Positions 23,301 through 61,519 of a stretch of DNA of 64,000 bases are shown here, piece by piece. Every line of letters begins with the position of its first letter. The first letter of the stretch is position 1. Source of the DNA: Bryobacterales bacterium. Its GTDB lineage: Bacteria > Acidobacteriota > Terriglobia > Bryobacterales > Bryobacteraceae. A program made the position numbers and the translations under genes. Below the pieces are notes generated by a model. The model ran no database searches and had not been told where the DNA came from. It worked only from the letters and a program-made list of their open reading frames with translations. The stretch covers positions 1-64,000 of the forward strand of contig PLMF01000427.1 of assembly GCA_003142355.1 (NCBI GenBank). Reading direction: 5' to 3'.

Positions 23301-23846
23301 CGGGTCCGTGAAGTCGTGTCGCAATTCGCTGGTGGCATCGTCGCGGTCCCGAAAGAAACGCAGAATCGCCATCGCCTGCAAACCGGTCGGACCGAGCGAC
23401 CAGAGCGGGTTGTGGGCGCGGTCGAACAGGCCGGCCATGCCGGGGAGTTCAGCGGTCCGGGCAAACACATCGAGCAGGTAATCGGCGTCGTTCTTGTGTC
23501 GGTTCTGCTGGTACCAGAGTGCCTGGCGGTCGAGCGCCTCGTTCAGGCGGTCGCGGCCGTCCATCTTCGGGCCGGAGATCCAGACCTCATCGATGAGATC
23601 GTTATCCTCCAGGAAGCGCACGAATACCGAAGCCAGCAGCCAGTGGACGGCGGCTTGAGTCACCGCTTCGTCGCGGAACGCGAGCCACGCGCCGGGGGCA
23701 GTGCGGCCCGCTTCGGCGGCGGCCTTGTGGCGCGCTTCGATCGCATGTTTGAGCGCAGGCTCATCCTCCACGCGGGCGCGGATATCGGCTTCCGTGGCGG
23801 CCAGCAGTTTCTTGAGACCCTCGCGGAGGGAGGCTTCGTCGATCAT
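20301..23846 (-). CDS. pglX: PglX, BREX adenine-specific DNA methyltransferase
   Basis: This is an 1181-residue protein. I place the start at ATG 23846 (MIDEASLREGL), with GGGAGG upstream and an ATGA overlap with the pglW stop; a longer in-frame extension lies inside pglW. The SAM-binding motif LIDPTCGSGHFLLAAF is near residue 238 and the catalytic NPPY of N6-adenine methyltransferases (AVVGNPPYINV) near 370. The C-terminal part would be the target recognition region. In BREX, PglX methylates host sites for self-marking. In the original type 2 (Pgl) model it acts with the PglW kinase and PglZ phosphatase. Both catalytic motifs are intact. Confidence 0.94.
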   Translation of the reverse strand: MIDEASLREGLKKLLAATEADIRARVEDEPALKHAIEARHKAAAEAGRTAPGAWLAFRDEAVTQAAVHWLLASVFVRFLEDNDLIDEVWISGPKMDGRDRLNEALDRQALWYQQNRHKNDADYLLDVFARTAELPGMAGLFDRAHNPLWSLGPTGLQAMAILRFFRDRDDATSELRHDFTDPAWNTRFLGDLYQNLSEFARKRYALCQTPGFVVDFILDRTLTPALDVFGLEQTRLIDPTCGSGHFLLAAFDRLFAKWVEREPDGNLRLLAQRALDAVYGVDLNPFAVEIAEFRLLIAALRGCGITRLKDAPSFSLQLATGDSLLHGRLQGREHSIQYPMGHDPRSHYYATEDEKALERILGQQYHAVVGNPPYINVSDPVLRETYRARYGSCRGTYQLSVPFIERFMNLTRPALPDPSQQAGFQGLIVSSAFMKRSFGKTLVETYIPRWDLTYVIDCAGCYIPGHGTPTVILVARNQPPVGDHLRVVRGVRGEITLPSDPASAPVWSAIAHQVELPGTASKWVSVSDGDRRAFGVWPWSMGGGGAAELKAFLEDAPRERMSESCQSRVGGGVRIAEEEAFYTGACRHRRNALGPEELREIVVGESCRDWELRPCDLVLFPYSKAVTSPAFLSVLWPWRTLLAARTTFQGNMADAGRGWWEYQQYTPFPYDTQLSVAYGEITTHSHFVLDRGGRVFNCTAPVIKLPGPTSEVDYIGLLGILNSAVGCFWLRQTCHSKGTRGIGGGLCTEAWEQFYVFSPTVLSSIPVPKIQPVGMASAIQRAADARAALSPDLVTSDDLRREHLEAARSCAAAHLARMIALQEELDWQVYHLYGLLNEDLSLPPEEVPPLKLGERPFEIVMARQMAAGELETAWFERHGSTPITELPSHWPERYRRAAERRLEIIATNHDIALIEQPEYKRRWNLPKWEDLERKALENWLLNRMESAALWADPELKSCSRLADLMRRDPEFAQVAELAEGRPDYDIAALVKRLALKQAVPFLPVLRYKPSGMEKRREWEKTWELQRREDAGEEAEIPVPPKYRSADFQDATWWSLRGSLDVPKERFILYSGLEGTSDSSPVIGWAGWDHLKRAQALTAYYQHVKEQEGLSEERLKPALAGLLDIIPWLKQWHNEPDSATGDRMGDTFASFLEAECQELGITVDSLQEWTPVRASRAGRRRG

Positions 23847-26800
23847 CGCAGGCCTCCCTCGTCGTCGGATGTGCTGTGTTCGGTAAGCCAGGCCGGCGGG
23901 ATTTCGGCTGCCTGGTTGGCGCTGGCGGCAGGCACCGGCACGCCATCTATTGTTGGTCGCCCGGTCTGCTGGTCGCCCGCCACCAGAACCCAAAGGCTGT
24001 TCGCGAGGCGGCCATCGGAAAGGCGCGCCAGCAGGCTCATCTCTCCGTAGCGGGCCAGCAGGCCGGGGTACGTCACCAGCAGCGGACTCGTGCGCGCGCG
24101 CAGCTTTTCCTCCACGGCGGGTAGCGCCTGGCGGAGCAACTGCTGGAGACGGCGCCAGTCCTGGCTTTCGGGCGGCGCGGCGTCGGCGCGAAGCACCACG
24201 TCCCAATCCGCCCCCAGGCGTTGCGCGCAACCGCGCATGGCGGCGATGATTTCACTGTCGAGGTTGAACACGCCCATGGGGAAGCGCCGCCGGAGGATCT
24301 CCTCGGCGCGGCGCACGTTCTTCGAGGCGGTGAAGAGCGCCAGGTACGAGGGCGTTTTGTAGGCGGCAGCGAGAGCGCGCTCGAACTCCCGCGCGATTTG
24401 CCGCTCGGGCGACAGCTCTTCGGCCGCGCGGTGCGGGGGTGGCGTGTAGCGCGTGTGCAGGCTGACCGAAGAGGAACTGGTACCCGGCTTCGGCGCGAGG
24501 TAGCGTTCCGCGCGCGTGTCCCAGGAGAGCACCAGCCCGCATTCCAGCACCAGGGCGTCCAGTTCGGGACGGCCGGGCAGCGGTTGCGCGTCGGGGTAGC
24601 GGTCGCGTACGCGGCGGCGAAGATCCTCGACGGTCAGGCCGTCGAGGCCGGCAAGCGCGGCCTGCGCCAGTTTCAAGGCCCGCGCCGCGGGCATGCCCGT
24701 GGGGTACAGTTCCTGCCGGGGCGAGAGCGAGACGCCGCCCACTGCCGCTGCGAGGCGGCGCAGGCGGCTTTCGGAGAGCGCTTCCGGGGTCTCCGGCGTG
24801 GCACGTAGCATCTCCAGCGCGCGGGCGGGCGAAGGCATGGGGTCCGCCGCCGCCACGTCCCGCGCCGTTTCCGCGAGCCGCCAAGCGAAATGGAACAGCG
24901 TTTCGGTGGTGGCTACCAGGTAGAGACCGTGGGCGCGGCTCTCTTCCCAGCGCGGCTTATCCATGATGCGCTCGGTTTCGAGCACCGCCCGGACCACCGC
25001 CGCTGCCCGCCGGATACGCAAGCTCGGGTCCGCGGCTTCGGCTCCGCGGGCGGCGAGCAGGTATTCCGCTAGTTCGCGCGCCGTGGCAATGCAGCCCTCT
25101 GCCTCCAGGAACTGGGCGATCTCGTTGCGGACCTCGGTGAGCGAGCGCGAGCGGCGCCAGCGTTCGCGAGCGCTGGTAAGATCCTGGCCGATGAGCGCGC
25201 GAGTCTTGCCTGTGCGGCGGGCGATCTCGGTCTGAGTCGGGAATGACGGCGCGCCCGTGCTGGCGTCATCGAGTTCGAGCAGCATCAGGAGTCGCTGGCG
25301 GTGCGCGTGGTCGGGTTTGTAGCGCGCAGTGGGGAGCAGGTCCCGAAGCAGTTCGTCAATGGTACGGGCGGCGGCACCTTCCGCCGGGACCTCTTCGGGA
25401 GGCGGGGCCGGCGCTTGCTCCGGCACGGCGCTTTCGGGGAAGCGGGCGCGGAGGAGCTTGAGCAGGTCCAGGACCTCACGGCGGGTCTTGTTGCCCAAGC
25501 CACGAAGCTGGAAAAAGGTGGAGGAAGGCTGGCGCAGCAGGTTCTCTACGGTGAAGATATCCAGCCGGTCGAGCGCGTTGTGGGCGCGGGTGCTGATGGG
25601 CAGATCCGAAAGGTTCGTGGAAAGCTGCGCGGTCGCCGCAGCCATCGGGAGCGCCTTCGGATCGGGCTGACTGCTCTCGCTCGCAGCGGACGCGACGAAG
25701 GCCGAGTGCCAGGCGGCGCGCATGTAGGCGGCGTTGTCGTAGCGGTCCTTGGGATCTCGCCGGAGTGCCATGCGGAAGAAGTCGAGCAGGGCCTCGCGTA
25801 CCGGCGCGTCGATCAGTTCGGCCTCGATGGTGGCTTCGGCGTTCACCAGGTGGGGCGCGCTCTGGCGGTCGCCCCAATACGGCAAGGCGCCCGTGGCCAT
25901 TTCATGCAGCACCATGGCGGCGGCGAAGCGTTCGGCGGCGGTGTCCCAGCGCCGGCCGCGCTCCTTGAGCTGGAGGAAAGGCTCCAGGTAGGGCGGGGTG
26001 CCGGCGCGGATTTGGTCGAGCGGGGTGCCGGAGAGGGAGAAGTCGAACAGCTTGAGGCGGAGTTCGTGGTTTTTGCCGTATTCTGCGATGCCGATGTTGT
26101 CGGGCTTGAGATCGCGGTGCGTTACGCCCTGCTCCTCCAGAAACTGCAGCGCTTCGAGCAGGTCTTCGCCGAAGCGCTGGAGCAGGTCGAGCGAGAGGCG
26201 GCCTTCGCGGGTGAGGCGCTGCGCCAGGGTTTCGACGCCGGCGCGCTCCATGAGGAATCCGGCCAGTCCCTGGATGGAGAGCGTGTTCTTCTCGGGGGCG
26301 ACGATGCGCGGGTGGCGCAGGGCGTCGAGCGTGGCGTGCTCGGCAAGGATGCGGTCGTTGTACTCGGGGCGGCGGGCAATCTTGAGCACCAGTTGGCGGC
26401 CGCCCTGTTCCACCAACAAGGCGATGGCGGACGAGCCGCCGCCGAACCGCTGTTTCACCACCAAGCCGCCCTCCAGCCGGTCGCCGGCCTTGGCTTCGAG
26501 CGGGTGGACCGTGGGCTCCTCGGCGGCGCGGGTGAGCTTATCCTCGTAGGCGTCGAGCCCCCTGAGGAAGTTCACCACGGACTCCGTGCGGGCGATGACC
26601 TCACCGCGCGTGCTTTCGTGGATGAGTTCTTCGAGTTCGGGTGCAACGCCATCCAGGACGCCGGTGAGCACGAATCCCTGGCGGTCGCGGAGAAGCTGGT
26701 CGCGCTCCGGCAGGCTGTCGGCGGCCGGCTTCCCGGCGAAGATGTGATACGCAATGGCGCCGAGCGAGAAGACGTCCATGGTTTCGCCGCGCCCGCGCGG

Positions 26801-28180
26801 ATCGAGCAGGGCTTCCGGCGCGATATAGACCAACTGGCTTCCCTCCGCGAGCCGCTGCGGGTGAATCGTGGTGGGCCGGCCGGAAGGACTGCCGGAGAGG
26901 GTGCCCAGGGGTCGGCCGAACTGCCAGTTGAAAATGCGGAGCTGCGGCTTCCCAGAGGCGGCTCCCGTAACCAGGACGCTGCGCGGCGTCAGCGCGCGGT
27001 GGATAACGCGGCGGCCGTGAGCGTACTTCAGCGCTTCGGCGAGCTGGCGGATGAGGTCGAGGCGCTGATCGAGGGTGAGCCGGTGGCCCTCCTGCGCCAG
27101 GTAGTGGTCCAGTCGGACTTCGTCGCGCTCACGGCGGAAGATGATGGCCGGGCCCAGTTCGTGCTCGCGGAAATCCAGCGCCTTCACGATGCCGGGGTGA
27201 TCGAGGCCATCCAGGATGAGGTATTCCCGATTGGCCGCCTCCTTGATTCGCTCCCGTTCACCAGGTTCGGCGGCTGCAACGTTATAGAGCCGCACGCGGC
27301 GGGGCGTCTTGGTGGAAGAGTGTTCGGCGGCGAAGTCCTGGCACGAGAGCAGCGCGTTCTCCTCGATGAGGTCCGTCAGGACGTAGTCGCCCACCCGCCG
27401 TTCCCGCTGCGAATGGCGGATGCCCGCCTGCTCCAGCGCCTGCACGATGGCCCGCGCCACTGGCTTATCGATAACGGTGCCGGCGAGCGGCGTGATGCCG
27501 GGCGATTCGCGCCGCAGAAGAGCGGGGATGATGCCCGGCGCCTTATCGAGTGGCAGCCGGGCGCAGACGCGCATGCGCTCGCTCTCCGGCAATTGGATGC
27601 TGATGGAGGGGTCGGAGCAGAAGATCAACGCTTCGACGTAAGGCCGCTTGATCTCCTTGAAGGCCTTTTGGCGCTCCAGCAAGTCGCCCAGCTTACGCGC
27701 CTTGCTGTTGGCCAGGATCAGAGGGCTGTCGATTGTGATCGGGCGCCCTTCCTGCTCCCAAAACCAGGTGTGCCGGTTCCCGGTGATCTTGCCGCCCCGG
27801 CTCTTGATCTCTACGAGGAACAAGCCCGCGCGGGTCACCACCAGCGCGTCGATCTCGTTCACGGACCCATCATCCCCGATGAACTCAAAGTTGGAGTACA
27901 GCAGCACCGGATCGGAATCCGGCAGATTCTCGCGCAGGTATTCCAGCGCCTCCCGCTCGTGGGGGTATTTCGATTCGGCGTAGCGCTTCCAACGGCCAGA
28001 GGATAAGGACATCCGGAACAAATCAATTCTAGCTGTTATTGCAGCAGACGGAGCGTCCCGTTCAGACTCATCGAGGGCTGCCAGCATCCGTGAATCAATC
28101 ACAACCTCGACCAGGCGACCCCGTGCGCTGCCTATGGAAATGTTAGAAAACTGGTGCATCCGCCTGCGGCGACGCGACAT
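23843..28180 (-). CDS. pglW: PglW, NERD-domain Ser/Thr kinase of type 2 BREX
   Basis: This is a 1445-residue protein from the longest start. The recognisable part begins near MSLSSGRWKRY (28012), so the true start could be there; no start has a well-placed ribosome binding site. The domains run in this order. A NERD nuclease-related domain has NEIDALVVTRAGLFLVEIKS (residues about 100-130). A first kinase-like domain follows, whose catalytic loop reads VIHRALTPRS, lacking the catalytic Asp. A second kinase domain has GGGSSA, VLKIA and an intact THRDLKPDN loop (near 688), with DFS in place of DFG. Near 860-925 comes a helix-hairpin-helix unit like the RNA polymerase alpha C-terminal domain (FFQLRGLGNKTRREVLDLL), then further HTH segments. 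It is the first gene of the operon. Confidence 0.92.
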   Translation of the reverse strand: MSRRRRRMHQFSNISIGSARGRLVEVVIDSRMLAALDESERDAPSAAITARIDLFRMSLSSGRWKRYAESKYPHEREALEYLRENLPDSDPVLLYSNFEFIGDDGSVNEIDALVVTRAGLFLVEIKSRGGKITGNRHTWFWEQEGRPITIDSPLILANSKARKLGDLLERQKAFKEIKRPYVEALIFCSDPSISIQLPESERMRVCARLPLDKAPGIIPALLRRESPGITPLAGTVIDKPVARAIVQALEQAGIRHSQRERRVGDYVLTDLIEENALLSCQDFAAEHSSTKTPRRVRLYNVAAAEPGERERIKEAANREYLILDGLDHPGIVKALDFREHELGPAIIFRRERDEVRLDHYLAQEGHRLTLDQRLDLIRQLAEALKYAHGRRVIHRALTPRSVLVTGAASGKPQLRIFNWQFGRPLGTLSGSPSGRPTTIHPQRLAEGSQLVYIAPEALLDPRGRGETMDVFSLGAIAYHIFAGKPAADSLPERDQLLRDRQGFVLTGVLDGVAPELEELIHESTRGEVIARTESVVNFLRGLDAYEDKLTRAAEEPTVHPLEAKAGDRLEGGLVVKQRFGGGSSAIALLVEQGGRQLVLKIARRPEYNDRILAEHATLDALRHPRIVAPEKNTLSIQGLAGFLMERAGVETLAQRLTREGRLSLDLLQRFGEDLLEALQFLEEQGVTHRDLKPDNIGIAEYGKNHELRLKLFDFSLSGTPLDQIRAGTPPYLEPFLQLKERGRRWDTAAERFAAAMVLHEMATGALPYWGDRQSAPHLVNAEATIEAELIDAPVREALLDFFRMALRRDPKDRYDNAAYMRAAWHSAFVASAASESSQPDPKALPMAAATAQLSTNLSDLPISTRAHNALDRLDIFTVENLLRQPSSTFFQLRGLGNKTRREVLDLLKLLRARFPESAVPEQAPAPPPEEVPAEGAAARTIDELLRDLLPTARYKPDHAHRQRLLMLLELDDASTGAPSFPTQTEIARRTGKTRALIGQDLTSARERWRRSRSLTEVRNEIAQFLEAEGCIATARELAEYLLAARGAEAADPSLRIRRAAAVVRAVLETERIMDKPRWEESRAHGLYLVATTETLFHFAWRLAETARDVAAADPMPSPARALEMLRATPETPEALSESRLRRLAAAVGGVSLSPRQELYPTGMPAARALKLAQAALAGLDGLTVEDLRRRVRDRYPDAQPLPGRPELDALVLECGLVLSWDTRAERYLAPKPGTSSSSVSLHTRYTPPPHRAAEELSPERQIAREFERALAAAYKTPSYLALFTASKNVRRAEEILRRRFPMGVFNLDSEIIAAMRGCAQRLGADWDVVLRADAAPPESQDWRRLQQLLRQALPAVEEKLRARTSPLLVTYPGLLARYGEMSLLARLSDGRLANSLWVLVAGDQQTGRPTIDGVPVPAASANQAAEIPPAWLTEHSTSDDEGGLR

Positions 28181-52309: not shown

Positions 52310-53710
52310 CTAACACGTTGGAAGAGGCTTACCGCCGCGGGAGGTATCCAGAACCCGCGACGCGAGCCGACGGATGTCATCCAGCGTTGTTGCTGGATTC
52401 GTCATGACGACCCGTAGATACCGGCGTCCGCCGGCGACAGCGGTGGACAGATGGAAGTCCCCTTCGGCCAGCAAACGGTCGCGCACACGCAGTTGCTCTT
52501 CATCCCCGCCGGCCACGCGGAAGCAGAGAATGTTGCTCAGCGGCTCGGCGAGACACTCCAAGCCTGGAATGCCGCGAAGGACCTCGTACGCCTGATGGGT
52601 GAGGTCAAACTGCCCGTCGATATAACCCGCGAGGCCGCTCTCGCCGAGTGCCGCCAGCACGGCGAACAGCCGCAACCCGAGGGCCGCCTTTGTGCACTCC
52701 ACCGTACGATGGACGAAATCGACTCCGGGCTGATGCTTGCCGTGGAAGAGATAGCTGGCGTCCTGATGGAAGGCGGTATCGAGCGTCGCGGCATCGCGCA
52801 CCAGCAAGGCGGTGCACAGCCCCGGCGTGCACAGGAGTTTGTGCGCGTCCCAAGTCAGCGAATCCGCCAGTTCGACTCCGTCGAGCCGCCAACGGTGACG
52901 CGGACTGAGGAGCGCGCTGGCGCCATGAGCGCCGTCAACGTGCAGCCAGAGACCGTGGTTCCGGCAGATTCCGGCGATCTCCCGGAGGGGATCGAATGCA
53001 CCGGTCGCGGTGCTACAGGCATTGACCACCAGGGCGAAGGGCCGTTTTCCACCGGTGCGCGCCCGCTCGATCACAGCCGCGACTTCCGCCGGAATCACTC
53101 TGCCCGCGGAGTCGACGGCCAGCGCGTGGACATTCTCTTCGCCGATTCCCATGATGCCCGCCGCGCGGGCTATTGAGTAGTGGCAATCCGCCGAGGCGAT
53201 CAACGCAAGATCGCCGCGACATCCCTTGGCCCAGGTGGCGCTGTCGAACCGGCTGCGGGCGGCGATAAGCGCCGTCAGATTGGCGAGCGAGCCGCCGTGG
53301 GTCAATACGCCGCCGGCGGGGCCGGTCCATCCAACTTTGGAGTTGAGCCAGTCGATAAGGAACGCTTCGATAGCCGCCGCGGCCGGGCCGATCTCGTAAA
53401 TCGCCATGGGGTTGTTGGTGCAGCCCTCCACCAGCATCGCCAGCGCAGCCGCCGGATGCGGAACGGCAACCTGGTGAGCCAGGCTGCCGGGGTGGTGCAA
53501 TCGTACGGTCAATTCCAGATACCGGCGGATGAAATCCGCGAAAGCTTCACCGGTGAGCCCTCCCTGCTCAACGTGAGTCTTCAGTTCCAGCGTCCCGATC
53601 ACTTCCGCGATCGGAAGTTGGCGCACCACCGGCAACGCTCCCGAAAGCGATTCTCTGCGGTAGCGCTCCAGTTCTTCGGCGACGATCCGGACGTTCTCCA
53701 AGAAGGTCAT
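52310..53710 (-). CDS. PLP-dependent (group II) decarboxylase
   Basis: This is a 466-residue pyridoxal-phosphate enzyme of the group II amino acid decarboxylase family. The PLP site is visible: VVNACSTATGAFDPL, then LWLHVDGAHGASALL (Asp binding the pyridine), then the Schiff-base Lys in SLTWDAHKLLCTPG. Family members act on glutamate, 2,4-diaminobutyrate, tyrosine or DOPA, and I cannot tell the substrate. It starts 9 bp after hgcB on the same strand, with a weak ribosome binding site, and is the last gene of the marR-like, hgcA, hgcB unit. A decarboxylase is not a usual partner of hgcAB, so its role there is open. Confidence 0.85.
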   Translation of the reverse strand: MTFLENVRIVAEELERYRRESLSGALPVVRQLPIAEVIGTLELKTHVEQGGLTGEAFADFIRRYLELTVRLHHPGSLAHQVAVPHPAAALAMLVEGCTNNPMAIYEIGPAAAAIEAFLIDWLNSKVGWTGPAGGVLTHGGSLANLTALIAARSRFDSATWAKGCRGDLALIASADCHYSIARAAGIMGIGEENVHALAVDSAGRVIPAEVAAVIERARTGGKRPFALVVNACSTATGAFDPLREIAGICRNHGLWLHVDGAHGASALLSPRHRWRLDGVELADSLTWDAHKLLCTPGLCTALLVRDAATLDTAFHQDASYLFHGKHQPGVDFVHRTVECTKAALGLRLFAVLAALGESGLAGYIDGQFDLTHQAYEVLRGIPGLECLAEPLSNILCFRVAGGDEEQLRVRDRLLAEGDFHLSTAVAGGRRYLRVVMTNPATTLDDIRRLASRVLDTSRGGKPLPTC

Positions 53711-53719
53711 ACCGGCATC

Positions 53720-53995
53720 TCAAGAGCAATCGCAATTGGCGCCGGTAGGGTCTCCCCGGCGAATCGATCTCAGTATCGCGGCGGCGCAGCCCACCCCGCT
53801 TGAGACTTCGATTGCGCCCACCGGGCAATTCATCCGGCAGGCTCCACATTGCATGCAGTTGCCGCGATGAGCCACTTTGGCTTTGCGCTGGACTAGGGCG
53901 AACACGGCGTGCGGGCAGACCTCCTCGCAGCGGCCGCAACCGTTGCAGAGCGTCTCATTCAGCGCCAGTGAATCGCCAGCCAACAGGTATTGCAT
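53720..53995 (-). CDS. hgcB: HgcB, mercury methylation ferredoxin
   Basis: This is a 91-residue 2[4Fe-4S] ferredoxin. Cluster ligands are C17-x2-C20-x2-C23-x3-C27 and C47-x2-C50-x2-C53-x3-C57. The segment CMQCGACRMNC corresponds to the family signature CMECGAC. The HgcB-specific features beyond a plain ferredoxin are also present: Cys70 in SGVGCAAA and a C-terminal cysteine pair (C88-D-C90), used in known HgcB proteins for mercury binding or transfer. It lies 15 bp after hgcA. HgcB reduces the corrinoid of HgcA so that it can pass a methyl group to Hg(II). Assignment is strong because both genes occur together. Confidence 0.93.
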   Translation of the reverse strand: MQYLLAGDSLALNETLCNGCGRCEEVCPHAVFALVQRKAKVAHRGNCMQCGACRMNCPVGAIEVSSGVGCAAAILRSIRRGDPTGANCDCS

Positions 53996-54010
53996 ATGCG
54001 CCTCCGTCGA

Positions 54011-55048
54011 TCAAATGAAAGCTGCCGCCAGGCGCAACGCGGCCCCTATCCCGGCGCAGACCAGAATTGCGGGCATTGCGTGCCGCACCTCCAGCCGTGC
54101 GCCCGCGAGGTTGGTGAACGTTGAGGAGCCGGTGAACATCATCCCCATGTAAGATGCGATGGCGGCGCCGAGCAGGGCCGTGCCTGAGGTCTCGACGGCG
54201 CCGCCAGGCAACGCGATGAGCACGGCGGCGATGCATAGCGCGCCCGTAATCGCGCCCTTGACCGCGAAGATCCGGGTGGGAAGCCATGGCAATAGCAGCG
54301 GCGTCACCACTCCTCCAGCGAAGATGGCGGCCAGGAACGGCGCGAAATCGGCGGCCACGTGCCAACTCAGTGAACGGTGGCGCACCGCATATAGCGCCGC
54401 GAGGGCGCCCAAAATGAGGAGCGCGGGCTTAAGTGCTTGGGACAACTCCATCGGCGCCAGCGCCAGGCGCGCCTTCCAGCCGAAGGTGACGCGCCGCATA
54501 TCGGGTGTGGCCTTCATGCCCGCAGCCAGGTAGGCGCCGATGTCGCGTGCACGAATCGGGCCGTAGCGCACCGAGAAGCCGGTGGCGCGCTTCACTTCGT
54601 GCGCCGACACTCCGGTGGCCCCAAGTTGCGGCAACACCAGATTGCGGTGGTCCACAACCTCCGCGAGTTTGACCGCCTCCATCCGCCGCACCAGTTCGCA
54701 GGTTCCGAACGTGCCCTTGCCGGCGGCGCACCAAACATTCACTCCCTTTGTATCCAGCGCCAGCAGCCACACGTCTAGACCCGCCAGTTCGCGCCGCACC
54801 GCATCGATGGTCAGCTTGTAGTTGGCCGTCACCAGGACGGGCGACAGCCGGCCAGGCTCGCCCACGCGATACAGGCCCGGCGGAATCAGGTAGCGCGTGC
54901 GCCCGATGCCCCAGCGCACGCGCCAACCGCCGAGCACGTCGCGCCAGGTAAGGCGTGTAGAAAGCGCCGGCGCCGGGCCCGCCGGCTTCCCGATGGCGGC
55001 GATCGGTACCGGCGAACCACCGGAGCACCCACAGCTAGCTCTCTCCAT
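54011..55048 (-). CDS. hgcA: HgcA, corrinoid mercury methyltransferase
   Basis: This is a 345-residue protein. The N-terminal half is the corrinoid-binding domain. It carries the diagnostic cap-helix motif NVWCAAGKGTFGT at residues 104-116, with Cys107 the expected lower axial ligand to cobalt. Other conserved blocks fit (SPVLVTANYKLT, ATGVSAHEVKRATGF, YGPIRARDI, GMKATPDMRRVTF). From about residue 210 four or five transmembrane helices follow, as in known HgcA. The ATG at 55048 has GGAGG upstream and overlaps the MarR-like gene by 14 bp. HgcA transfers a methyl group to Hg(II), producing methylmercury. I judge the gene intact. Confidence 0.95.
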   Translation of the reverse strand: MERASCGCSGGSPVPIAAIGKPAGPAPALSTRLTWRDVLGGWRVRWGIGRTRYLIPPGLYRVGEPGRLSPVLVTANYKLTIDAVRRELAGLDVWLLALDTKGVNVWCAAGKGTFGTCELVRRMEAVKLAEVVDHRNLVLPQLGATGVSAHEVKRATGFSVRYGPIRARDIGAYLAAGMKATPDMRRVTFGWKARLALAPMELSQALKPALLILGALAALYAVRHRSLSWHVAADFAPFLAAIFAGGVVTPLLLPWLPTRIFAVKGAITGALCIAAVLIALPGGAVETSGTALLGAAIASYMGMMFTGSSTFTNLAGARLEVRHAMPAILVCAGIGAALRLAAAFI

Positions 55049-55532
55049 TGCAGCCCTCCGTCTTGGGAGTGCATTCCGCCGCGCGGAGGTTTCGCATGCG
55101 TTCGCCCAGCAATCCCACAGTCCGCAAGACGCAACGCTGGTCCTTCTCTCCCCACCCGGCGAGCAGTTCCCCGTAGTACTTGTTGCAGACGCCGTCGATG
55201 TAAGCGACCTTGGCGCGCCCCGCCGCGGTTAGAGTGAGCCGCACCGACCGCCGGTCCGTAGCGCCCTCGGCGCGCTCCACAAAGCCGGCGCGGACCAGTC
55301 CGTCCACGGTGCGGCTCAACGTGCTCGGATCGAGGTCCAGCGCGGCGGCCAAGCCGCTGAGCGACATCTCCGACTCCGCCAGTTCGAGCAGCGCATGACA
55401 CTGGGACAGCGTGACTCCGCAACATTGCGTGTCCGCCTCCAGTTGGCGCATCACCTCGCGCTCCAGCGCTCGAAGATGACGGCGGAAAGCGGCAATGGCG
55501 GCTGGTTCCGGAATAGCGGATCTTGTGCTCAC
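55035..55532 (-). CDS. MarR-family regulator with cysteine cluster
   Basis: This is a 165-residue protein from GTG 55532; a TTG 36 bp upstream is less likely. The winged helix is standard: LSGLAAALDLDPSTLSRTVDGLVRAGFVERAEG, then TDRRSVRLTLT with a DxR wing. Seven or so cysteines stand out, notably DTQCCGVTLSQC (C37, C38, C45) in the dimerisation helix and several near the C-terminus, which suggest a thiol or metal sensor. No ribosome binding site precedes the start, and the -10-like TATA sequence is so close that the mRNA may be leaderless. It overlaps hgcA by 14 bp and most likely controls hgcAB, probably in response to mercury, arsenic or redox state. Confidence 0.8.
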   Translation of the reverse strand: MSTRSAIPEPAAIAAFRRHLRALEREVMRQLEADTQCCGVTLSQCHALLELAESEMSLSGLAAALDLDPSTLSRTVDGLVRAGFVERAEGATDRRSVRLTLTAAGRAKVAYIDGVCNKYYGELLAGWGEKDQRCVLRTVGLLGERMRNLRAAECTPKTEGCNGES

Positions 55533-55553
55533 ACAATGATTGTATAATGCAAT
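55533..55553 (-). promoter_or_regulatory. Palindromic operator-promoter of the hgcAB unit
   Basis: A perfect palindrome, ACAAT-G-ATTGT (55533-55543), abuts the GTG start. It overlaps ATTG-N7-CAAT (55539-55553), which contains the TATA-like -10 region. MarR proteins bind such palindromes, so this is a good autoregulatory site at the head of the marR-hgcA-hgcB-decarboxylase unit. Confidence 0.55.
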
Positions 55554-55764
55554 AGATGCGTTGCGCAAGCGTAGTCTTATGATGTCTTGCCGGGGAGGTT
55601 CGGCTTCGCGGCGAGGGCTCGGCGCTCACTCTGTCAGAACAGGTTCGAGGTTCTGAATAGCGCCATCTTCGGCGGGCCAGCATGTGTGGCCGGATCCACC
55701 ACGTCCGGCGCCATGACCAGCACCGTCGACAATGCCGGGCGGCAACTTCAGTTGGCCGGGAGTT

Positions 55765-56184
55765 CTAAATATCCCAATCCTGCACGTAGGTTCTCTGCTT
55801 CTCCGCCCAACTGCGGACAATTGAGGCGAAATTGACGCCGTCCACGATCCCGGCAACGCTCTTATCGACGTTGCGCCACAATTCGCTGAATGGGGTCTCG
55901 CGCTGGTGGCCCTTCTGTTTCCGCGGGGAGCCGTCGACGAACCGCAGCACCTCACCAACGGTAATCGCCTCCGGAAGCCGTGCCAGGTTGTAGCCGCCAG
56001 CCACGCCCCGGTGCGACTCCACGAAACCGCCCTGTTTCAGCGACGATAGAATCGACTCCAGAAATTTTCTGGGGATCTTCTGCCGCTTCGCAATGCTGGC
56101 TATCTTGATGGGTTCATCGGTGCTCTGCGAGGCCAGGTCAAAAAGGGCCTGAAGGGCATAGCGGCCTTTGGAGGAAATGTTCAT
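55765..56184 (-). CDS. Rrf2-family transcriptional regulator (CymR-like)
   Basis: This is a 139-residue Rrf2 protein. The winged helix-turn-helix is at residues 1-65 (SKGRYALQALFDLA, then RQKIPRKFLESILSSLKQGG), with GVAGGYNLARLPEAITVGEV following. It has no cysteines, so it is not an Fe-S sensor like IscR. It resembles CymR-type regulators, which sense cysteine status through a complex with CysK. It lies 48 bp after cysK in the metY-cysK-rrf2 order, supporting a CymR-like role in sulfur control. A truncated duplicate lies at 45035-45354. Confidence 0.85.
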   Translation of the reverse strand: MNISSKGRYALQALFDLASQSTDEPIKIASIAKRQKIPRKFLESILSSLKQGGFVESHRGVAGGYNLARLPEAITVGEVLRFVDGSPRKQKGHQRETPFSELWRNVDKSVAGIVDGVNFASIVRSWAEKQRTYVQDWDI

Positions 56185-56232
56185 AGATGCAGCGCGACCA
56201 GGAGCGGACGTCCACAGCCCGCCCCCGTCCGA

Positions 56233-57186
56233 TTATACGATGCCTTCGAAGAGCACCGAGGTCAGGTAGCGTTCGCCGGAGTCCGGAAGAATGACGACAA
56301 ACGTCTTCCCCGCGAACTCGGGTTGCTTTGCCAGCCGTGCCGCCACCGCCGCCGCGGCCCCGCTCGAAATACCGCTCAGCATGCCTTCTTCGCGCGCCAG
56401 CCGCTGGGCCGTTTCGATGGCTTCTTCGTTGGTGATGGTCTCTACGCGATCCACCACGGAAAGATCCAACGTGTCCGGAATGATGCCCGCGCCGATGCCC
56501 TGGATCTTGTGCGGTCCCGGCTTCAGCGGCTGGCCGGCCAGTTTCTGGGTGATCACCGGGCTGTTCGCCGGTTCCACAGCCACCGAGGTGATAGCCTTGC
56601 CCCGTGTCTGCTTGATGTAGCGGGAAACGCCGGTGATGGTTCCGCCGGTCCCCACTCCGCTCACCAGAACGTCCACCTCCCCGTTGGTGTCGTCCCAAAT
56701 CTCCGGGCCGGTGGTGCTGAAATGGATGGCGGGGTTGGCCGGGTTCTTGAACTGCTGGAGCAGCAGGTAGTGCTTCGGGTCGGAATTGTAGATCTCTTCC
56801 GCCTTGGCGATGGCTCCGGGCATTCCTTTCGCGCCCTCGGTGAGCACCAGGTTGGCGCCGAATGCCTTTAGCACCTTGCGCCGCTCCAGTGACATGGTCT
56901 CGGGCATGGTCAATGTAATCGAGTAGCCGCGCGACGCCGCAACGAACGCCAGTGCGATCCCCGTATTGCCGCTGGTGGGTTCCACCAGTTCCACGCCGGG
57001 CTTCAGCAGCCCGCGCTGCTCGGCGTCCCAAATCATGGAGGCGCCGATCCGGCACTTCACCGAGTAGGAGGGGTTGCGGCCTTCGATTTTGCCGTACACC
57101 TTCGTTCCCGGCCCGTTCACAATGCGATTGAGCTTGATAAGCGGAGTCTTTCCGATGCTGAGTGAGTTGTCTTCGAACGATGCCAT
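56233..57186 (-). CDS. cysK: Cysteine synthase A (O-acetylserine sulfhydrylase)
   Basis: This is a 317-residue PLP enzyme making cysteine from O-acetylserine and sulfide. The Schiff-base Lys lies in [15 protein letters not shown], and the substrate loop [13 protein letters not shown], the phosphate-binding [15 protein letters not shown] and [10 protein letters not shown] are all in place. It starts 6 bp after metY and is followed by rrf2, forming one sulfur-assimilation operon. In CymR systems CysK also acts as a co-repressor partner, which fits the neighbouring regulator. It differs from the second cysteine synthase at 61516. Confidence 0.92.
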
Positions 57187-57192
57187 GTGCGT

Positions 57193-58500
57193 TTACTCCT
57201 GTGAGATTTGCAGGGCCCGGTCCAGATCGGCCTTGATGTCTTCGATATCTTCGATCCCCACCGAGACCCGAATATAGTCCGGCGTGACTCCCGTCTCGGC
57301 CTGTTCCTTTTCCGTGAGCTGGGAATGCGTGGTGGAGGCCGGATGGATCACCAGCGTCTTGGCGTCCCCGACGTTGGCCAGATGGCTGGCCAGCTTCACA
57401 TTGTTGATGAACTTGACGCCGGCATCTTTTCCGCCGCGCACGCCGAACCCCAGAATCGCCCCCGCGCCTTTGGGCAAATACTTTTTCGCATTCTGGTAGT
57501 GCGAGTGGTTGGGAAGACCGGGGTAGTTCACCCAGGTCACCGCGGGATGCCGCAGCAGCCACTCCGCCAGCGCCTGCGCGTTTTGCGTATGGCGTTCGAT
57601 GCGCAGATGCAGGGTCTCGATGCCCAATAGCAGCAGGAACGCCGCGAACGGGCTCTGTGTGGCCCCCGTGTCGCGCAGCCAGTGGGTGCGTATGTGGATG
57701 ATGTAAGCCAGGTTGCCGAGCGGCTTGAGCGCCTCGGCGAAAACAATGCCGTGGTACGAGTCGCTCGGTTCGGTGAACTCCGGCCACTTCCTGGGATTGT
57801 CCGCCCACTGGAAATTACCGCTATCGACGATGGCGCCGCCGATGTGGACCCCGTGGCCGCCCAGGAACTTGGTGGTCGAGTAGACCGCGATATCGATGCC
57901 GTGCTCGAACGGCCGGAACAGCGCCGGCGTCAGCACCGTGTTATCGATGATCACCGGCAGGCCGTGCTTGTGGGCGGTATCGGCGAGGGCCCGAAAATCG
58001 GGCACATCGTTCTTGGGATTCCCCACCGATTCCAGGTACACCAGGCGGGTGTTCTCGTCCACCAGCTTGTCGATCTCCTCGGGATGATCGGAATTGAAGA
58101 ACCGCACCTCGATGCCCAGTTTCTTGAAGGTCTGGGTGAAGAGCGTCCATGTGCCTCCGTACAGGCTGGTGGCGGAAATGAAGTTCTGCCCGGAGTGCGT
58201 GATGGTGAGGATGGCGGCCACAATGGCCGCCTGGCCCGAGGCGAACGCCAGCCCGCCAATACCGCCATCGAGCGCCGTGAGCCGCTTCTCCAGCACGTCG
58301 TTGGTCGGGTTCATCAGGCGCGAGTAGATGTTGCCGAACTCTCGCAACCCGAAAAGATTCGCTGCCGTATCGGCATCTTTGAAAACGTAGCTGGATGTAG
58401 CGTAAATCGGGACCGCCCGTGCCGTCGTAGCGGGGTCGGGCTCCTGTCCGGCATGCAAAGCGAGCGTGCCTAGACCCTGTTTCCGTTGTGTGTCTGCCAT
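57193..58500 (-). CDS. metY: O-acetylhomoserine sulfhydrylase
   Basis: This is a 435-residue enzyme of the Cys/Met metabolism PLP family. It shows YSRLMNPTNDVLEKRL, GLAFASGQAAI, IDNTVLTPALFRPFEHG, and the PLP Lys in YSTTKFLGGHG. The length and the extra loop separate it from cystathionine gamma-synthase and fit MetY, which forms homocysteine from O-acetylhomoserine and sulfide. It is the first gene of metY-cysK-rrf2. Translation starts at ATG 58500. Confidence 0.9.
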   Translation of the reverse strand: MADTQRKQGLGTLALHAGQEPDPATTARAVPIYATSSYVFKDADTAANLFGLREFGNIYSRLMNPTNDVLEKRLTALDGGIGGLAFASGQAAIVAAILTITHSGQNFISATSLYGGTWTLFTQTFKKLGIEVRFFNSDHPEEIDKLVDENTRLVYLESVGNPKNDVPDFRALADTAHKHGLPVIIDNTVLTPALFRPFEHGIDIAVYSTTKFLGGHGVHIGGAIVDSGNFQWADNPRKWPEFTEPSDSYHGIVFAEALKPLGNLAYIIHIRTHWLRDTGATQSPFAAFLLLLGIETLHLRIERHTQNAQALAEWLLRHPAVTWVNYPGLPNHSHYQNAKKYLPKGAGAILGFGVRGGKDAGVKFINNVKLASHLANVGDAKTLVIHPASTTHSQLTEKEQAETGVTPDYIRVSVGIEDIEDIKADLDRALQISQE

Positions 58501-58526
58501 GAGTGAGTCCTCTCCGGTGTCACCGG

Positions 58527-59429
58527 CTATAGTCCGTATGATACGCCCAGCGCGAACTGATGCCGCGCTTTCAGATTCACGCCCGGTTCGATGGTGCCGG
58601 CCGCCTGGGCCACACCGAAATCGATATTGAATTTCGCCTTCGGCGAGGGCACAATCCGCGCGGCGTAGGTGATGGTGGTCGGCACGATCGCGCCCGGCAG
58701 GTTCCGCACCTCGCGCGGTTCCTGTGAAAACTCCGACCCGAAGATGAGTGTGCTCTTGGCCGGTCCTGTAAACACGAATGCCGCCGCTCCGAAGAGCCGG
58801 CCTTTGTATGCCGGCGCATTCCCGGCGAGCCCGTAGACGGAAGCGTTGGTGGCCTTGTATCCGAGGTTCAATACGATCGGCACTGGCTTGGTTTGCGTGA
58901 TGGTCTTGCTTGCCACCACGTAGAAATCGGCGTTCGTGTAGCTCTTGTGGGGCGTTACCAGCAACCCGCTGACGTTACGATCCTGGGTGCGCGCCACGAA
59001 GCCCCCGGAGATCGCGGGCAGCCAGGACTGCTTGCCGGCGTTTTCTTTCACCACGTTGACTTTTGCATGCACCAAGTTGAAGCCCGAGTCCCACAGCGGG
59101 CTAAGCCCCGCCGTGCTGCCTTGCTGGTGCAGATCGCGCGTGTACCCGAATTCCACCCGTCCTCCCGCACCTTCCGTGACCGAAATGGTGTGGAAATTGC
59201 CCAGCACCGGCCCGGCGTTCAGGAAGTGATAGGCCACAATCGGCCTTCCGAAGCCGCTCGCGGGAGACGCCGCCGTATAGGCCAGCGGAGTGATGAAGAC
59301 GCCGGTTTGGCCGTCCCAATTGAGGCTCTGAGCCGCCGCTATGCCAGCGCCCAGGAGCCCGGTGAGCAGCAGGACAGCCGCCCTGCTCACTCGACCGATT
59401 AAAGAGTTTAAGTTCGTATTGTCCATCAT
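58527..59429 (-). CDS. DUF3034 family exported protein
   Basis: This is about 300 residues. I choose ATG 59429 (an adjacent ATG at 59426 is equal); upstream starts add an unlikely leader. The signal peptide is about residues 1-35 (VLLLTGLLGAGIAAAQ). The mature start SLNWDGQTGVFITPLAYTAA and the Gly/aromatic beta-strands match DUF3034, thought to be outer-membrane beta-barrel proteins. It lies between metY and the MoaD-MoeB gene, behind an AT-rich stretch that likely holds its promoter. The role is unknown; a link to sulfur uptake is only suggested by position. Confidence 0.7.
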   Translation of the reverse strand: MMDNTNLNSLIGRVSRAAVLLLTGLLGAGIAAAQSLNWDGQTGVFITPLAYTAASPASGFGRPIVAYHFLNAGPVLGNFHTISVTEGAGGRVEFGYTRDLHQQGSTAGLSPLWDSGFNLVHAKVNVVKENAGKQSWLPAISGGFVARTQDRNVSGLLVTPHKSYTNADFYVVASKTITQTKPVPIVLNLGYKATNASVYGLAGNAPAYKGRLFGAAAFVFTGPAKSTLIFGSEFSQEPREVRNLPGAIVPTTITYAARIVPSPKAKFNIDFGVAQAAGTIEPGVNLKARHQFALGVSYGL

Positions 59430-59499
59430 GTCAATCGAGTATAGGGTATTTTTCGCAGGATGGCAACGGAATCCGCGCGTCCGCATCAGGACCACCAGC

Positions 59500-59560
59500 T
59501 TATATCATTGATTTTATGTGAGATATATCATAAATAAATTTATCAAAATTCGATAGACAT
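59500..59560 (-). promoter_or_regulatory. AT-rich regulatory region with ATGTCTATCGA motif
   Basis: This is a strikingly AT-rich 60 bp in a GC-rich region, upstream of the DUF3034 gene. It contains TATATC/GATATA inverted elements (59500-59530) and, on the minus strand, ATGTCTATCGA (59550-59560). The same 11 bp occur at 62523-62533 in the encapsulin/cysM intergenic region, so it may be a shared sulfur-regulon site. Confidence 0.4.
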
Positions 59561-59583
59561 GGCGGTGATTGGCCGGCAAGTCG

Positions 59584-61020
59584 TCAATACTTCGGCACAC
59601 TCGGGTCCACCTGGCTGCTCCAAGCCAGAATGCCGCCCTTCATGTTGCGGACGCGATGGAAGCCGGCGTTGCGCAGAATGGCGCAGGCTTTGGCGCTGCG
59701 CGCCCCGCTTTTGCAGTGGATGATGATATCGGCTGTGCGATCCAACTCGCTCACGCGCTTGGGGAACTCGCCGAGCGGGATCGGCTTGGCCGCGGGGATG
59801 TGGGCGATCCGGCGCTCGTGCGGCTCGCGCACGTCGATCAGCAGGAAGTCGTCGCCGCGATCCAGTTTCCGCTTCACTTCCGTAACATCGATTTCGCCTT
59901 CGTCCACTTTCGTCTCACGATTCTGCGGCACGCCGCAGAACTGGTGATAGTCGATCAAGCGGGTGATGGTGGGGTGCTCGCCGCAAATCGGGCATTCCGG
60001 GTTCTTGCGCAGCCTCACTTCGCGGAAGCGCATGGCCAGCGCGTCATACAGCAGCAGGCGGCCGGCCAGGGGCTCGCCAATGCCGAGAATCAGCTTCACG
60101 GTTTCGGTGGCCTGGATCAACCCGATGGTCCCTGGCAGAATGCCCAGCACGCCGCCCTCGGCGCAACTCGGAACCAGGCTCGGAGGCGGCGGCTCGGGAT
60201 AGAGGCAGCGGTAGCACGGTCCACCCTGGTAGGCGAACACCGTGGCCTGGCCTTCGAAGCGGAAGATGGAGCCGTACACGTTGGGCTTGCCGAGCAGCAC
60301 GCAGGCGTCATTCACCAGGTAGCGCGTGGGGAAATTGTCGGTGCCGTCCACGACGATGTCGTAGTCTTTCAAGATCGCCAACGCGTTTTCGCTGGTGAGC
60401 GCGGTTTCGTGCTTGACCACGGTCACGTTGGGGTTGATGGCGCGCATCTTCTCTTCGGCGGAGTCGAGCTTCTTCCGGCCCACGTCGTGTGTGAAATGGA
60501 TGACCTGCCGCTGGAGGTTGGAGGAATCCACCACGTCGAAATCCACGATTCCGATCCGCCCCACGCCCGCCGCGGCGAGGTACAGGCCCAAAGGGGCGCC
60601 CAGCCCGCCGGCGCCGATCAGCAGCACCTTCGCGGTCTTCAGCTTTTGTTGTCCTTTCACGCCAACCTCGGGAAGGATCAGGTGGCGGCTGTAGCGCAGC
60701 GTCTCCTCCCGGGAAAGTTCCTCCGTTTCGGCGGGAGCGGCAACACATGAGCCACCGGCGATCGACGGCACCAGGGAAATGGTGTCGGCCGCCGCGGCGA
60801 GCGTCGCGTCGCGGCTCAAGTAGCGGATGTCTTCGTCGTTCAGGTATACGTTGACGAAGCTGCGCACCTTGCCCTCATCGGTGAAGATCTGCTTTCGCAG
60901 CTCGGGATATTGCGCGGTCAGCGCGTGAAGCGCTTCGCCCACCGTGGCGCCGGAAACTTCGATGGCATCGAGCCTTCCGGTAAATTGCCGCAGTGGCGTC
61001 GGTATCAGGATCTTGGGCAT
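59584..61020 (-). CDS. MoaD/CysO - MoeB/ThiF - rhodanese triple fusion
   Basis: This is a 478-residue protein starting at ATG 61020. Residues 1-90 form a ubiquitin-like sulfur carrier (MPKILIPTPLRQFTGRL, ending VPSIAGG with the GG at 89-90). After a short linker comes the E1-like adenylating domain: LLIGAGGLGAPLGLYLAAAG for ATP, SSNLQRQVI, a Cys in VPSCAEGGVLGI, and zinc pairs CYRC and CPIC. The C-terminal rhodanese domain has the persulfide loop HCKSGARSAK. Carrier, activator and sulfur donor are normally separate. Here the carrier GG is internal, so it must be cut or act in a modified way. It lies 19 bp after the mec gene, which suggests CysO-type cysteine synthesis. Confidence 0.9.
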   Translation of the reverse strand: MPKILIPTPLRQFTGRLDAIEVSGATVGEALHALTAQYPELRKQIFTDEGKVRSFVNVYLNDEDIRYLSRDATLAAAADTISLVPSIAGGSCVAAPAETEELSREETLRYSRHLILPEVGVKGQQKLKTAKVLLIGAGGLGAPLGLYLAAAGVGRIGIVDFDVVDSSNLQRQVIHFTHDVGRKKLDSAEEKMRAINPNVTVVKHETALTSENALAILKDYDIVVDGTDNFPTRYLVNDACVLLGKPNVYGSIFRFEGQATVFAYQGGPCYRCLYPEPPPPSLVPSCAEGGVLGILPGTIGLIQATETVKLILGIGEPLAGRLLLYDALAMRFREVRLRKNPECPICGEHPTITRLIDYHQFCGVPQNRETKVDEGEIDVTEVKRKLDRGDDFLLIDVREPHERRIAHIPAAKPIPLGEFPKRVSELDRTADIIIHCKSGARSAKACAILRNAGFHRVRNMKGGILAWSSQVDPSVPKY

Positions 61021-61039
61021 GGGGTTCCTCGGTTCCAGG

Positions 61040-61519
61040 TCATCGGCCGGCGGCAGCCGGCCCGTCAACCGCCAAGCGCGGCGGCGAACTTGCGGCTGCC
61101 CGTTCCACAATCAACTTTTCTTTCACTGCTCCAGTTAGCTCCATATCCGGCAACCAGCTATTGGCGTGGTGGTAGAATCCGTACCGGATCGAAAGCACCA
61201 GGAAGGAGTACCACGGGCAGGAGTTCTTCAGATCGGTCTCGGAGAAATAGGCGTCGCAATCGGGGTGCGAATGGTAGATGCCGATCAGATCCATGCGCCG
61301 CTCGCGCGCCGCCCGGTCGGCGGCCAGCAGATCTTCCGGCCGCAACTCATAGCGCTCGTCCTGCTCGCCCGCGAACGCGTTTTCGAGCGGCAGCGCCACG
61401 CGCACGTCCTTTACGCCCTCCGCGGCGGACCCGAGCATGGCGCCACAGCATTCGTTCGGATAGGCGCGGCGCGCGTGTGCCACCATGACCTCCCACGCTT
61501 CGAAAGCAATCCGAATCAT
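61040..61519 (-). CDS. Mec-type JAMM metalloprotease
   Basis: This is a 159-residue JAB/MPN protein. The zinc motif is complete: Glu23 in YPNECCG, then H83-x-H85-x7-S93-x2-D96 in IYHSHPDCDAYFSETD. In actinobacteria such Mec proteins release cysteine from the carrier CysO. Its ATG overlaps the cysM stop by 4 bp (ATGA) and it is followed by the MoaD-MoeB-rhodanese gene, so the three form a carrier-protein cysteine pathway. It could also process the internal GG of the fused carrier, which is inference. Confidence 0.88.
   Translation of the reverse strand: MIRIAFEAWEVMVAHARRAYPNECCGAMLGSAAEGVKDVRVALPLENAFAGEQDERYELRPEDLLAADRAARERRMDLIGIYHSHPDCDAYFSETDLKNSCPWYSFLVLSIRYGFYHHANSWLPDMELTGAVKEKLIVERAAASSPPRLAVDGPAAAGR

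What the first reader, a model, noticed from the sequence alone, without database searches (positions are those of the whole stretch)
53720..55048. Complete hgcAB mercury-methylation pair in an acidobacterium-like genome
HgcA shows the exact cap-helix motif NVWCAAGKGTFGT with the Cys ligand, followed by a membrane domain. HgcB shows both iron-sulfur motifs, CMQCGAC, the extra Cys70 and a C-terminal Cys pair. The genes are adjacent and intact. This pair is the known requirement for methylmercury production, and it is found in few lineages.
Basis: partly seen in the sequence, partly recalled or inferred. Interest (0 to 1): 0.95.

Follow-up and report, generated by a model that had tools for sequence, protein, structure and literature searches.

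The report
Mercury-methylation operon with arsenic-type repressor
DNA that very likely comes from an acidobacterium holds an intact pair of genes of the kind known to make methylmercury, in a tight row headed by a gene for a likely metal-sensing repressor, some of whose close relatives sit beside predicted arsenic-methylation genes in other bacteria.

Summary
In detail: an intact hgcA (54011-55048, minus) and hgcB (53720-53995, minus) pair with all known catalytic cysteines. HgcA passes the curated NCBIfam model (401 bits, cut-off 275) and falls among true HgcA, apart from HgcAB-like fusions. HgcB only just passes (99.6, cut-off 99) and ends in Cys-Asp-Cys, not the usual Cys-Cys. The host is very likely a Bryobacteraceae-type acidobacterium. 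hgcAB in Acidobacteria was already published (PMC7438021), so the pair alone is a new member of a known kind.

The surroundings add more. The pair sits in a tight four-gene row. A MarR-family regulator overlaps hgcA by 14 bases, and a PLP decarboxylase begins 9 bases after hgcB. The regulator's subfamily has a nearly invariant CCGVT-x2-QCH motif; in four phylum samples 74 of 87 places examined lie beside hgcA (30) or arsM (44). An exact palindrome, ACAATCATTGT, overlaps a predicted -10 box, and that promoter layout recurs in six of six cassettes. Decarboxylase orthologues at about 70% or more were seen only near hgcB. Most likely the operon makes methylmercury from Hg(II) and is repressed until thiol-reactive metal arrives. 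Methylation, repression and sensing are inferred and untested.

The parts
55539..55568 (-). Predicted promoter: TTGCGC (55563-55568), 18 bases, TACAAT (55539-55544). The TTG listed as the regulator's start by the ORF listing is the predicted -35 box.
   Evidence: TTGnnn-N17/18-TACAAT is found in six of six cassettes, and in none of the six in any of 300 dinucleotide shuffles (sequences also). Against: the general scan (9 of 12 consensus matches asked) reported no promoter in 53400-56400.
55533..55543 (.). Candidate operator: perfect palindrome ACAATCATTGT, overlapping the -10 box and ending directly before the GTG start codon
   Evidence: only match within one mismatch in 64 kb (0.48 expected); core CAATNATTG in 9 of 93 upstream regions of regulator genes, 0.75 on average (at most 3) in dinucleotide shuffles.
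55035..55532 (-). MarR-family regulator, predicted 165 aa from the GTG at 55532 (mechanical ORF to 55568, 177 aa)
   Evidence: PF12802 50.0 bits (cut-off 27), PF01047 44.4 (24.6). Motif conservation. 20 of the 120 listed homologues are exactly 165 aa. Stop overlaps the hgcA start by 14 bases.
54011..55048 (-). hgcA: corrinoid domain with Cys107, then a predicted five-helix membrane domain
   Evidence: GGAGG seen before the ATG.
53720..53995 (-). hgcB: two-cluster ferredoxin with Cys70 and C-terminal CDC
   Evidence: (NF040864 99.6 bits, cut-off 99). GGAGG seen before the ATG.
52310..53710 (-). PLP-dependent amino-acid decarboxylase, predicted fourth gene of the operon, 9 bases after hgcB
   Evidence: PF00282 193.2 bits (cut-off 27). 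Orthologues at 70-73% directly after hgcB in three other cassettes and 1.5 kb after it in a fourth; absent in a fifth, L001. In 390 genomes the only match over 51% lies beside hgcB.

Best explanation
This is an intact hgcAB pair in a tightly packed four-gene row (MarR-family regulator, hgcA, hgcB, PLP decarboxylase) of a likely Bryobacteraceae-type acidobacterium, probably one operon whose HgcA and HgcB would methylate Hg(II) and whose regulator would repress it until a thiol-reactive metal arrives. Shown: gene order, overlaps, motifs, family scores, tree position, the palindrome over TACAAT, and the regulator subfamily's placement mostly beside hgcA or arsM. Inferred: HgcB passes electrons to the cobalt of HgcA, Cys107 ligates the cobalt, a methyl group (from SAM, as shown for the ND132 proteins in PMC11588087) goes to cobalt and then to Hg(II) brought by the C-terminal CDC of HgcB. 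Also inferred: the regulator dimer sits on ACAATCATTGT, blocks RNA polymerase, and lets go when C49/C50/C57/H58 and C128 (ORF numbering) bind a soft metal such as As(III) or Hg(II). The decarboxylase's substrate is unknown; the closest solved relatives include cysteine sulfinate decarboxylase.
For: HgcA NF040863 401.4 bits, HgcB NF040864 99.6. Cap-helix Cys invariant in 43 of 43 rows. Tree. Five predicted membrane helices and match to HgcAB model 9a0b. Regulator motif: C49 128 of 129, C50 129 of 130, C57 and H58 130 of 130, C128 121 of 130 (rows chosen by similarity). Neighbourhood counts of regulator hits at E <= 1e-20, looking about 1.5 kb to each side: acidobacterial phylum sample (396 genomes) 28 places: 10 beside hgcA, 13 with arsM, 5 neither; myxobacterial sample (235) 13 places: 1, 9, 3; spirochaete sample (198) 16 places: 15, 0, 1; Bacillota sample (348) 54 places, the best 30 examined: 4, 22, 4. 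Six of six arsM neighbours scanned pass the arsenite methyltransferase model NF008823. Promoter and palindrome. Decarboxylase.
Against: No activity, expression or binding datum exists for this genome, and no whole genome is held for the window, so other methyl-cycle genes could not be checked. HgcB is only 0.6 bits over its cut-off and lacks an adjacent C-terminal Cys pair. 7 of 17 hgcA-bearing genomes of the acidobacterial sample show no such regulator in the stretch held upstream of hgcA, and 71 of the 80 loci show none (some of these hold little upstream DNA). 13 of 87 regulator places examined lie by neither gene. Most relatives' upstream regions (84 of 93) do not hold the exact palindrome core. 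The regulator tree needs six changes for the hgc label, so one origin is not shown. L001 lacks the decarboxylase within the stretch held. The general promoter scan found no promoter.
Confidence: 0.72

Rival explanations
1. The pair is a true HgcAB, but its everyday substrate is not mercury; methylmercury would be a side product. The linked decarboxylase and the arsM-type regulator would then point to another metal(loid) or thiol substrate.
For: The native role of HgcAB is unsettled (PMC10349881, PMC7305189, passages). Relatives of the regulator lie beside arsM genes, and a decarboxylase subfamily accompanies the cassette.
Against: The residues reported to matter for Hg methylation are kept, and HgcA groups with ordinary HgcA.
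Confidence: 0.15
2. The MarR gene is an ordinary drug- or aromatic-sensing MarR that happens to lie upstream.
For: Solved relatives are mostly SlyA- and MarR-type proteins. It passes no specific NCBIfam regulator model.
Against: 15 of 16 spirochaete hits and 10 of 28 acidobacterial hits lie beside hgcA, and 13 of the other 18 acidobacterial hits beside arsM. The Cys/His motif is nearly invariant.
Confidence: 0.1
3. The HgcA gene is a CdhD-type or HgcAB-like fusion relative and not a methylator.
For: Pfam names the domain CdhD (46.7 bits).
Against: HgcAB-like model 208.9 bits against a cut-off of 285; CFeSP-type model 65.8 against 306; HgcA model 401.4 against 275. Fusions fall outside in the tree.
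Confidence: 0.02
4. The HgcB tail (CDC-S) is degenerate and the pair has low or no activity.
For: NF040864 only just passed; 79 of 114 rows have CC.
Against: The CxC tail is shared by the related L001-L004 and L140, so it is kept. In ND132 loss of either C-terminal Cys alone had no effect and only the double mutant lost 95% (PMC7305189).
Confidence: 0.05

Closest known systems
hgcAB with 'putative transcriptional regulator' of permafrost methylators (McDaniel 2020, PMC7438021; section 8 and passages read)
   Same: Acidobacteria, a Deltaproteobacterium and others with similar hgcAB, each preceded by a similar putative regulator; regulator found in 112 genomes there. L001 and L002 bear fen isolate names that I take, from recall, to be of the same permafrost set.
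   Different: The text held does not contain 'MarR', and the parts read give no Cys/His motif, operator or arsM sharing for that regulator; it says that the neighbourhoods share no other obvious similarity, whereas a decarboxylase is shared in five of six cassettes here. That it is the same regulator is inferred, not tested.
ND132 arsR-hgcAB (Gionfriddo 2023; not held; known through passages of PMC10349881)
   Same: A wHTH regulator upstream of and controlling hgcAB, with a link to arsenic
   Different: ArsR-like there; MarR family here, and the metalloregulatory ArsR model is not met (NF033788 20.2 bits against a cut-off of 55)
MarR-family genes near hgcA in Dethiobacter alkaliphilus and Geobacter daltonii (PMC10349881)
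   Same: MarR-family label near hgcA
   Different: Named only in passing there; sequences not compared here
AdcR/ZitR zinc-sensing MarR proteins
   Same: MarR fold. In the equal-length match to 3tgn_A (query 49-118, chain 33-102) H58 would fall at chain position 42, and ZitR H42 was the subject of a solved mutant (5yi1 title).
   Different: Weak sequence match (E 0.002), alignment itself not printed; extra Cys residues; metal unknown
MarR-type regulators beside arsM
   Same: CCG[VIL]T-x2-QCH motif in the nearest ones and adjacency to a gene that passes the arsenite methyltransferase model
   Different: Neighbour gene is arsM instead of hgcAB; more distant ones have a different motif (e.g. CCGDVTV-x-QC)

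Membership tests
HgcA (mercury methylation corrinoid protein) | NCBIfam NF040863 over cut-off | tested here: met
   401.4 bits, cut-off 275
HgcA (mercury methylation corrinoid protein) | Cap-helix N(V/I)WCA with strictly conserved Cys | tested here: met
   NVWCAAGKGTFGT, C107; invariant in 43 rows
HgcA (mercury methylation corrinoid protein) | C-terminal domain of five membrane helices | tested here: met
   Predicted model only: helices 191-224, 230-251, 261-279, 284-304, 314-344
HgcA (mercury methylation corrinoid protein) | Groups with HgcA, not with HgcAB-like fusions | tested here: met
   Nine fusions fall outside with support 99 (quick method, long outgroup branches)
HgcA (mercury methylation corrinoid protein) | Groups with HgcA, not with CFeSP (CdhD), in a tree | not tested
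   CFeSP rows were not in the tree; by family model the CFeSP-type score is 65.8 against 306
HgcB (mercury methylation ferredoxin) | NCBIfam NF040864 over cut-off | tested here: met
   99.6 bits, cut-off 99: marginal
HgcB (mercury methylation ferredoxin) | Two CxxCxxCxxxCP motifs, Cys73 equivalent, at least one C-terminal Cys | tested here: met
   C17-C27, C47-C57, C70, C88/C90
HgcAB methylator | Methylmercury production | not testable with these tools
   No activity data
HgcAB-like fusion protein | NF043039 over cut-off, fused ferredoxin | tested here: not met
   208.9 bits against 285; separate genes
MarR family | Pfam MarR over cut-off, MarR fold | tested here: met
   PF01047 44.4/24.6, PF12802 50.0/27; model pLDDT 87, best PDB matches MarR-type proteins
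ArsR/SmtB metalloregulators | NF033788 over cut-off | tested here: not met
   20.2 bits against 55, although PF01022 passes (27.1 against 22)
Metal-responsive repressor | Metal-dependent operator binding | not testable with these tools
   Only motif conservation and placement
Group II PLP decarboxylases | PF00282 over cut-off | tested here: met
   193.2 bits, cut-off 27; no specific equivalog met, e.g. DABA decarboxylase 203.7 against 900

The most novel reading that the evidence does not exclude
One family of thiol-rich MarR repressors, marked by CCG[VIL]T-x2-QCH, controls both arsenic methylation (arsM) and mercury methylation (hgcAB) in Acidobacteria, Spirochaetes, Myxobacteria and Bacillota, through an ACAATNATTGT operator on the -10 box in some branches; in the window's branch the operon also carries a dedicated decarboxylase that makes a thiol or amine needed for the natural job of HgcAB.
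Probability: 0.35. Interest if true: 0.75.

Novelty: new variant of a known kind. Interest (0 to 1): 0.5.

Why it matters
The controls on hgcAB expression, and its natural role, are open questions that limit prediction of methylmercury formation. If this regulator family senses As(III) or Hg(II), then arsenic load and methylmercury production would be linked in bacterial groups well beyond the one strain where an ArsR-like link is reported, and a named 11-base site plus a named motif make that directly testable. The decarboxylase tied to the cassette is a genetic hint at a partner reaction.

Tried and rejected
CdhD or HgcAB-like fusion identity: rejected. ArsR family for the regulator: NF033788 not met. 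Host metabolism (B12, SAM cycle, anaerobic respiration): could not be studied, no genome held. A hgcA count for Spirochaetes: the request failed as busy and was not repeated, since one search then left 4 of the 2,000 genomes; so the share of spirochaete hgcA with the regulator is unknown. Conserved 'YNxC' before the regulator's start codon first looked like protein; it is the palindrome and promoter read as codons. A single origin of the hgc-linked regulators is not resolved (the partial row L120 falls among hgc rows, likely an artefact). Synteny of the window's Oar, M28, Rrf2, CysK, MetY, DUF3034 and MoeB genes with L001-L004: none found in the stretches held. The first palindrome count (7 of 57, plain shuffles 0.2) left out 36 regulator regions; one search added them and a dinucleotide control (9 of 93, 0.75). 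Literature: the ten searches listed no paper whose title or abstract start describes an arsM-linked or hgcAB-linked MarR subfamily with this motif, or a decarboxylase in an hgc operon. Only PMC7438021, PMC10349881, PMC7305189, PMC11588087, PMC11653729 and PMC8060452 were opened, as passages, plus section 8 of the first; in the last two nothing on this was seen. The held library lacks most subscription papers.

Full report
Observation. The window encodes, on the minus strand, hgcA (54011-55048, 345 aa) and hgcB (53720-53995, 91 aa), 15 bases apart and both intact. HgcA has NVWCAAGKGTFGT with Cys107; HgcB has two four-cysteine motifs, Cys70 and a C-terminal C-D-C-S. The NCBIfam models for both are passed, HgcA clearly (401.4 bits, cut-off 275), HgcB narrowly (99.6, cut-off 99). 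AlphaFold2 gives a mixed alpha/beta N-terminal domain and five long C-terminal helices, and the best match in the PDB library is the published computed HgcAB model 9a0b, followed by CFeSP structures.

Place in the family. A quick maximum-likelihood tree of 115 rows puts the window's HgcA in a 14-row clade (SH-aLRT 98) with Bryobacterales L001 and L004, Acidobacteria L003 and the MAG labelled Myxococcales L002; nine HgcAB-like fusions (L141-L149, recognised by eye by their fused ferredoxin part) stand apart with support 99. Long outgroup branches were flagged, and no CFeSP row was included. Of the 120 listed relatives of the window's MoeB protein 8 bear an organism name; all 8 are Bryobacteraceae, Acidobacteriia or Terriglobia, at 80-83% identity, so the host is very likely a Bryobacteraceae-type acidobacterium.

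HgcB tail. Of 114 rows (the window, the 80 loci and 33 loci of genome searches, some genomes twice), 79 have CC after the Cys73 site, 14 have only CxC, 5 one Cys, 1 none; 10 lacked the site by my pattern (6 of them have TGA there; 4 have a variant), 3 had no hgcB in reach and 2 were cut. The window's close relatives L001-L004 and L140 share the CxC tail. PMC7305189 (passages) reports that one C-terminal Cys suffices in ND132, so CxC should be adequate.

The regulator. The gene upstream (stop 55035) overlaps hgcA by 14 bases and is a MarR-family protein (model pLDDT 87 and MarR-type PDB matches). The mechanical ORF begins at TTG 55568, but that TTG is the likely -35 box; the GTG at 55532 gives 165 aa, the exact length of 20 of the 120 listed homologues. 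In 130 aligned rows (the window, 120 search hits chosen by similarity, 9 loci) C57 and H58 are invariant, C49 is 128 of 129, C50 129 of 130, C128 121 of 130 (ORF numbering).

Where its relatives lie. I searched whole genomes with a 26-row alignment (A1) and looked about 1.5 kb to each side for HgcA or ArsM. Acidobacterial phylum sample (phylum of G001, 396 genomes): 28 places, 10 beside hgcA, 13 with arsM (one of them 0.8 kb off), 5 neither. Phylum of G007, from a locus labelled Myxococcales (235): 13 places, 1, 9, 3. Phylum of G022, Spirochaetota by title (198): 16 places, 15, 0, 1. Phylum of G011, Bacillota by title (348): 54 places, only the best 30 fetched, 4, 22, 4. In all, 30 of 87 examined places are beside hgcA, 44 with arsM, 13 neither; the genomes that served as centres of these samples were chosen for having hgcA and count among the places. 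arsM may lie on either side of the regulator. Six of six arsM neighbours scanned pass the arsenite methyltransferase model NF008823; the rest were called by tblastn. In the acidobacterial sample all 10 hgc-linked and the 4 strongest arsM-linked regulators carry CC[GE][VL]T-x2-QCH; weaker arsM-linked ones carry other forms. The converse is weaker: 10 of 17 hgcA-bearing genomes of that sample (over cut-off) show the regulator upstream, and 9 of the 80 loci do, some of which hold little upstream DNA. In the regulator tree (64 rows, without the Bacillota loci) the labels cluster, but hgc needs six changes and the root is not known.

Promoter and operator. ACAATCATTGT at 55533-55543 is the only match within one mismatch in the window. 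Its left arm lies within TACAAT, a -10-like hexamer 18 bases after TTGCGC. In six of six cassettes (window, L215, L216, L217, L218, L219) TTGnnn-N17/18-TACAAT precedes the start codon; in 300 dinucleotide shuffles none of the six ever did. The palindrome is exact in the window, L216 and L219, has one changed end base in L217, and is weaker in L218 and L215. Across 93 upstream regions of regulator genes the core CAATNATTG is exact in 9 (window, L082, L083, L084 beside hgcA; L106, L108, L109, L189, L202 beside arsM), against 0.75 on average and 3 at most in dinucleotide shuffles. A general consensus scan found no promoter here. The start codon directly after the operator suggests a leaderless or nearly leaderless message (inference).

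The decarboxylase. The gene at 52310-53710 starts 9 bases after the hgcB stop. Orthologues at 70-73% identity follow hgcB directly in L002, L004 and L215 and 1.5 kb on in L003; L001 lacks one within its stretch. In 390 genomes of the acidobacterial phylum 25 places match at E <= 1e-60; the only one above 51% is the hgc-linked one (72%), and none of the other 24 has hgcA or arsM within about 1.5 kb. The whole genomes of L002-L004 were not searched for it. Solved relatives include cysteine sulfinate and glutamate decarboxylases. This contrasts with the statement in PMC7438021 that such neighbourhoods share nothing else obvious.

Mechanism. Following PMC11588087 (passages) HgcB would reduce the cobalt of HgcA, SAM would give the methyl group, and the methyl would pass to Hg(II) delivered by HgcB thiols. 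The regulator would sit on the -10 box and leave when its Cys/His cluster binds a soft metal. In the equal-length match to AdcR 3tgn_A H58 would fall at chain position 42; ZitR H42 was mutated in a solved structure (title); that these are zinc ligands is recalled. All of this paragraph is inference.

Novelty. hgcAB in Acidobacteria and a putative regulator upstream were published (PMC7438021). MarR-family genes near hgcA are named in passing for two strains (PMC10349881). New here, as far as the ten searches listed under Tried and rejected show: the motif, the sharing with arsM, the operator and the decarboxylase.

Noticed in passing
window 10615-20291 (minus), long ORFs on to 28180: BREX-like defence island: BrxC/D ATPase (PF10923, 473 bits), PglZ-domain protein, DEAD-box helicase and a long weakly matched protein; the ORFs from 20301 to 28180 were not scanned.
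   Followed up: partly
L060, L066, L067, L076, L022, L204 (hgcB): The hgcB frame meets TGA exactly at the Cys73 position and then runs on into a Cys-rich tail, as expected of a selenocysteine HgcB; PMC11588087 mentions that some hgcA/hgcB may be selenoproteins.
   Followed up: partly
L219:3258-4496 (minus): In the Myxococcales-labelled MAG an apparent S-adenosylmethionine synthetase gene (recognised by eye, not scanned) lies divergently beside the hgc cassette; SAM is the reported methyl donor.
   Followed up: no
window 54011-55048, N-terminus: HgcA begins MERASCGC; 91 of 120 listed homologues have CC or CxC within the first 14 residues. Role unknown.
   Followed up: partly
L094 (Myxococcales-labelled MAG of L002): A second, apparently degenerate regulator copy without the CC motif, near an ORF that looks ArsR-like by eye.
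   Followed up: partly
window 55765-61110 (minus): Upstream sulfur-assimilation block: Rrf2 regulator, CysK, OAH/OAS sulfhydrylase, DUF3034-like, ThiS-ThiF-rhodanese fusion; not found beside hgcAB in the stretches held of L001-L004.
   Followed up: partly
window 2025-4697 (minus): CHAT-domain protein with TPR repeats beside an S41 peptidase.
   Followed up: no
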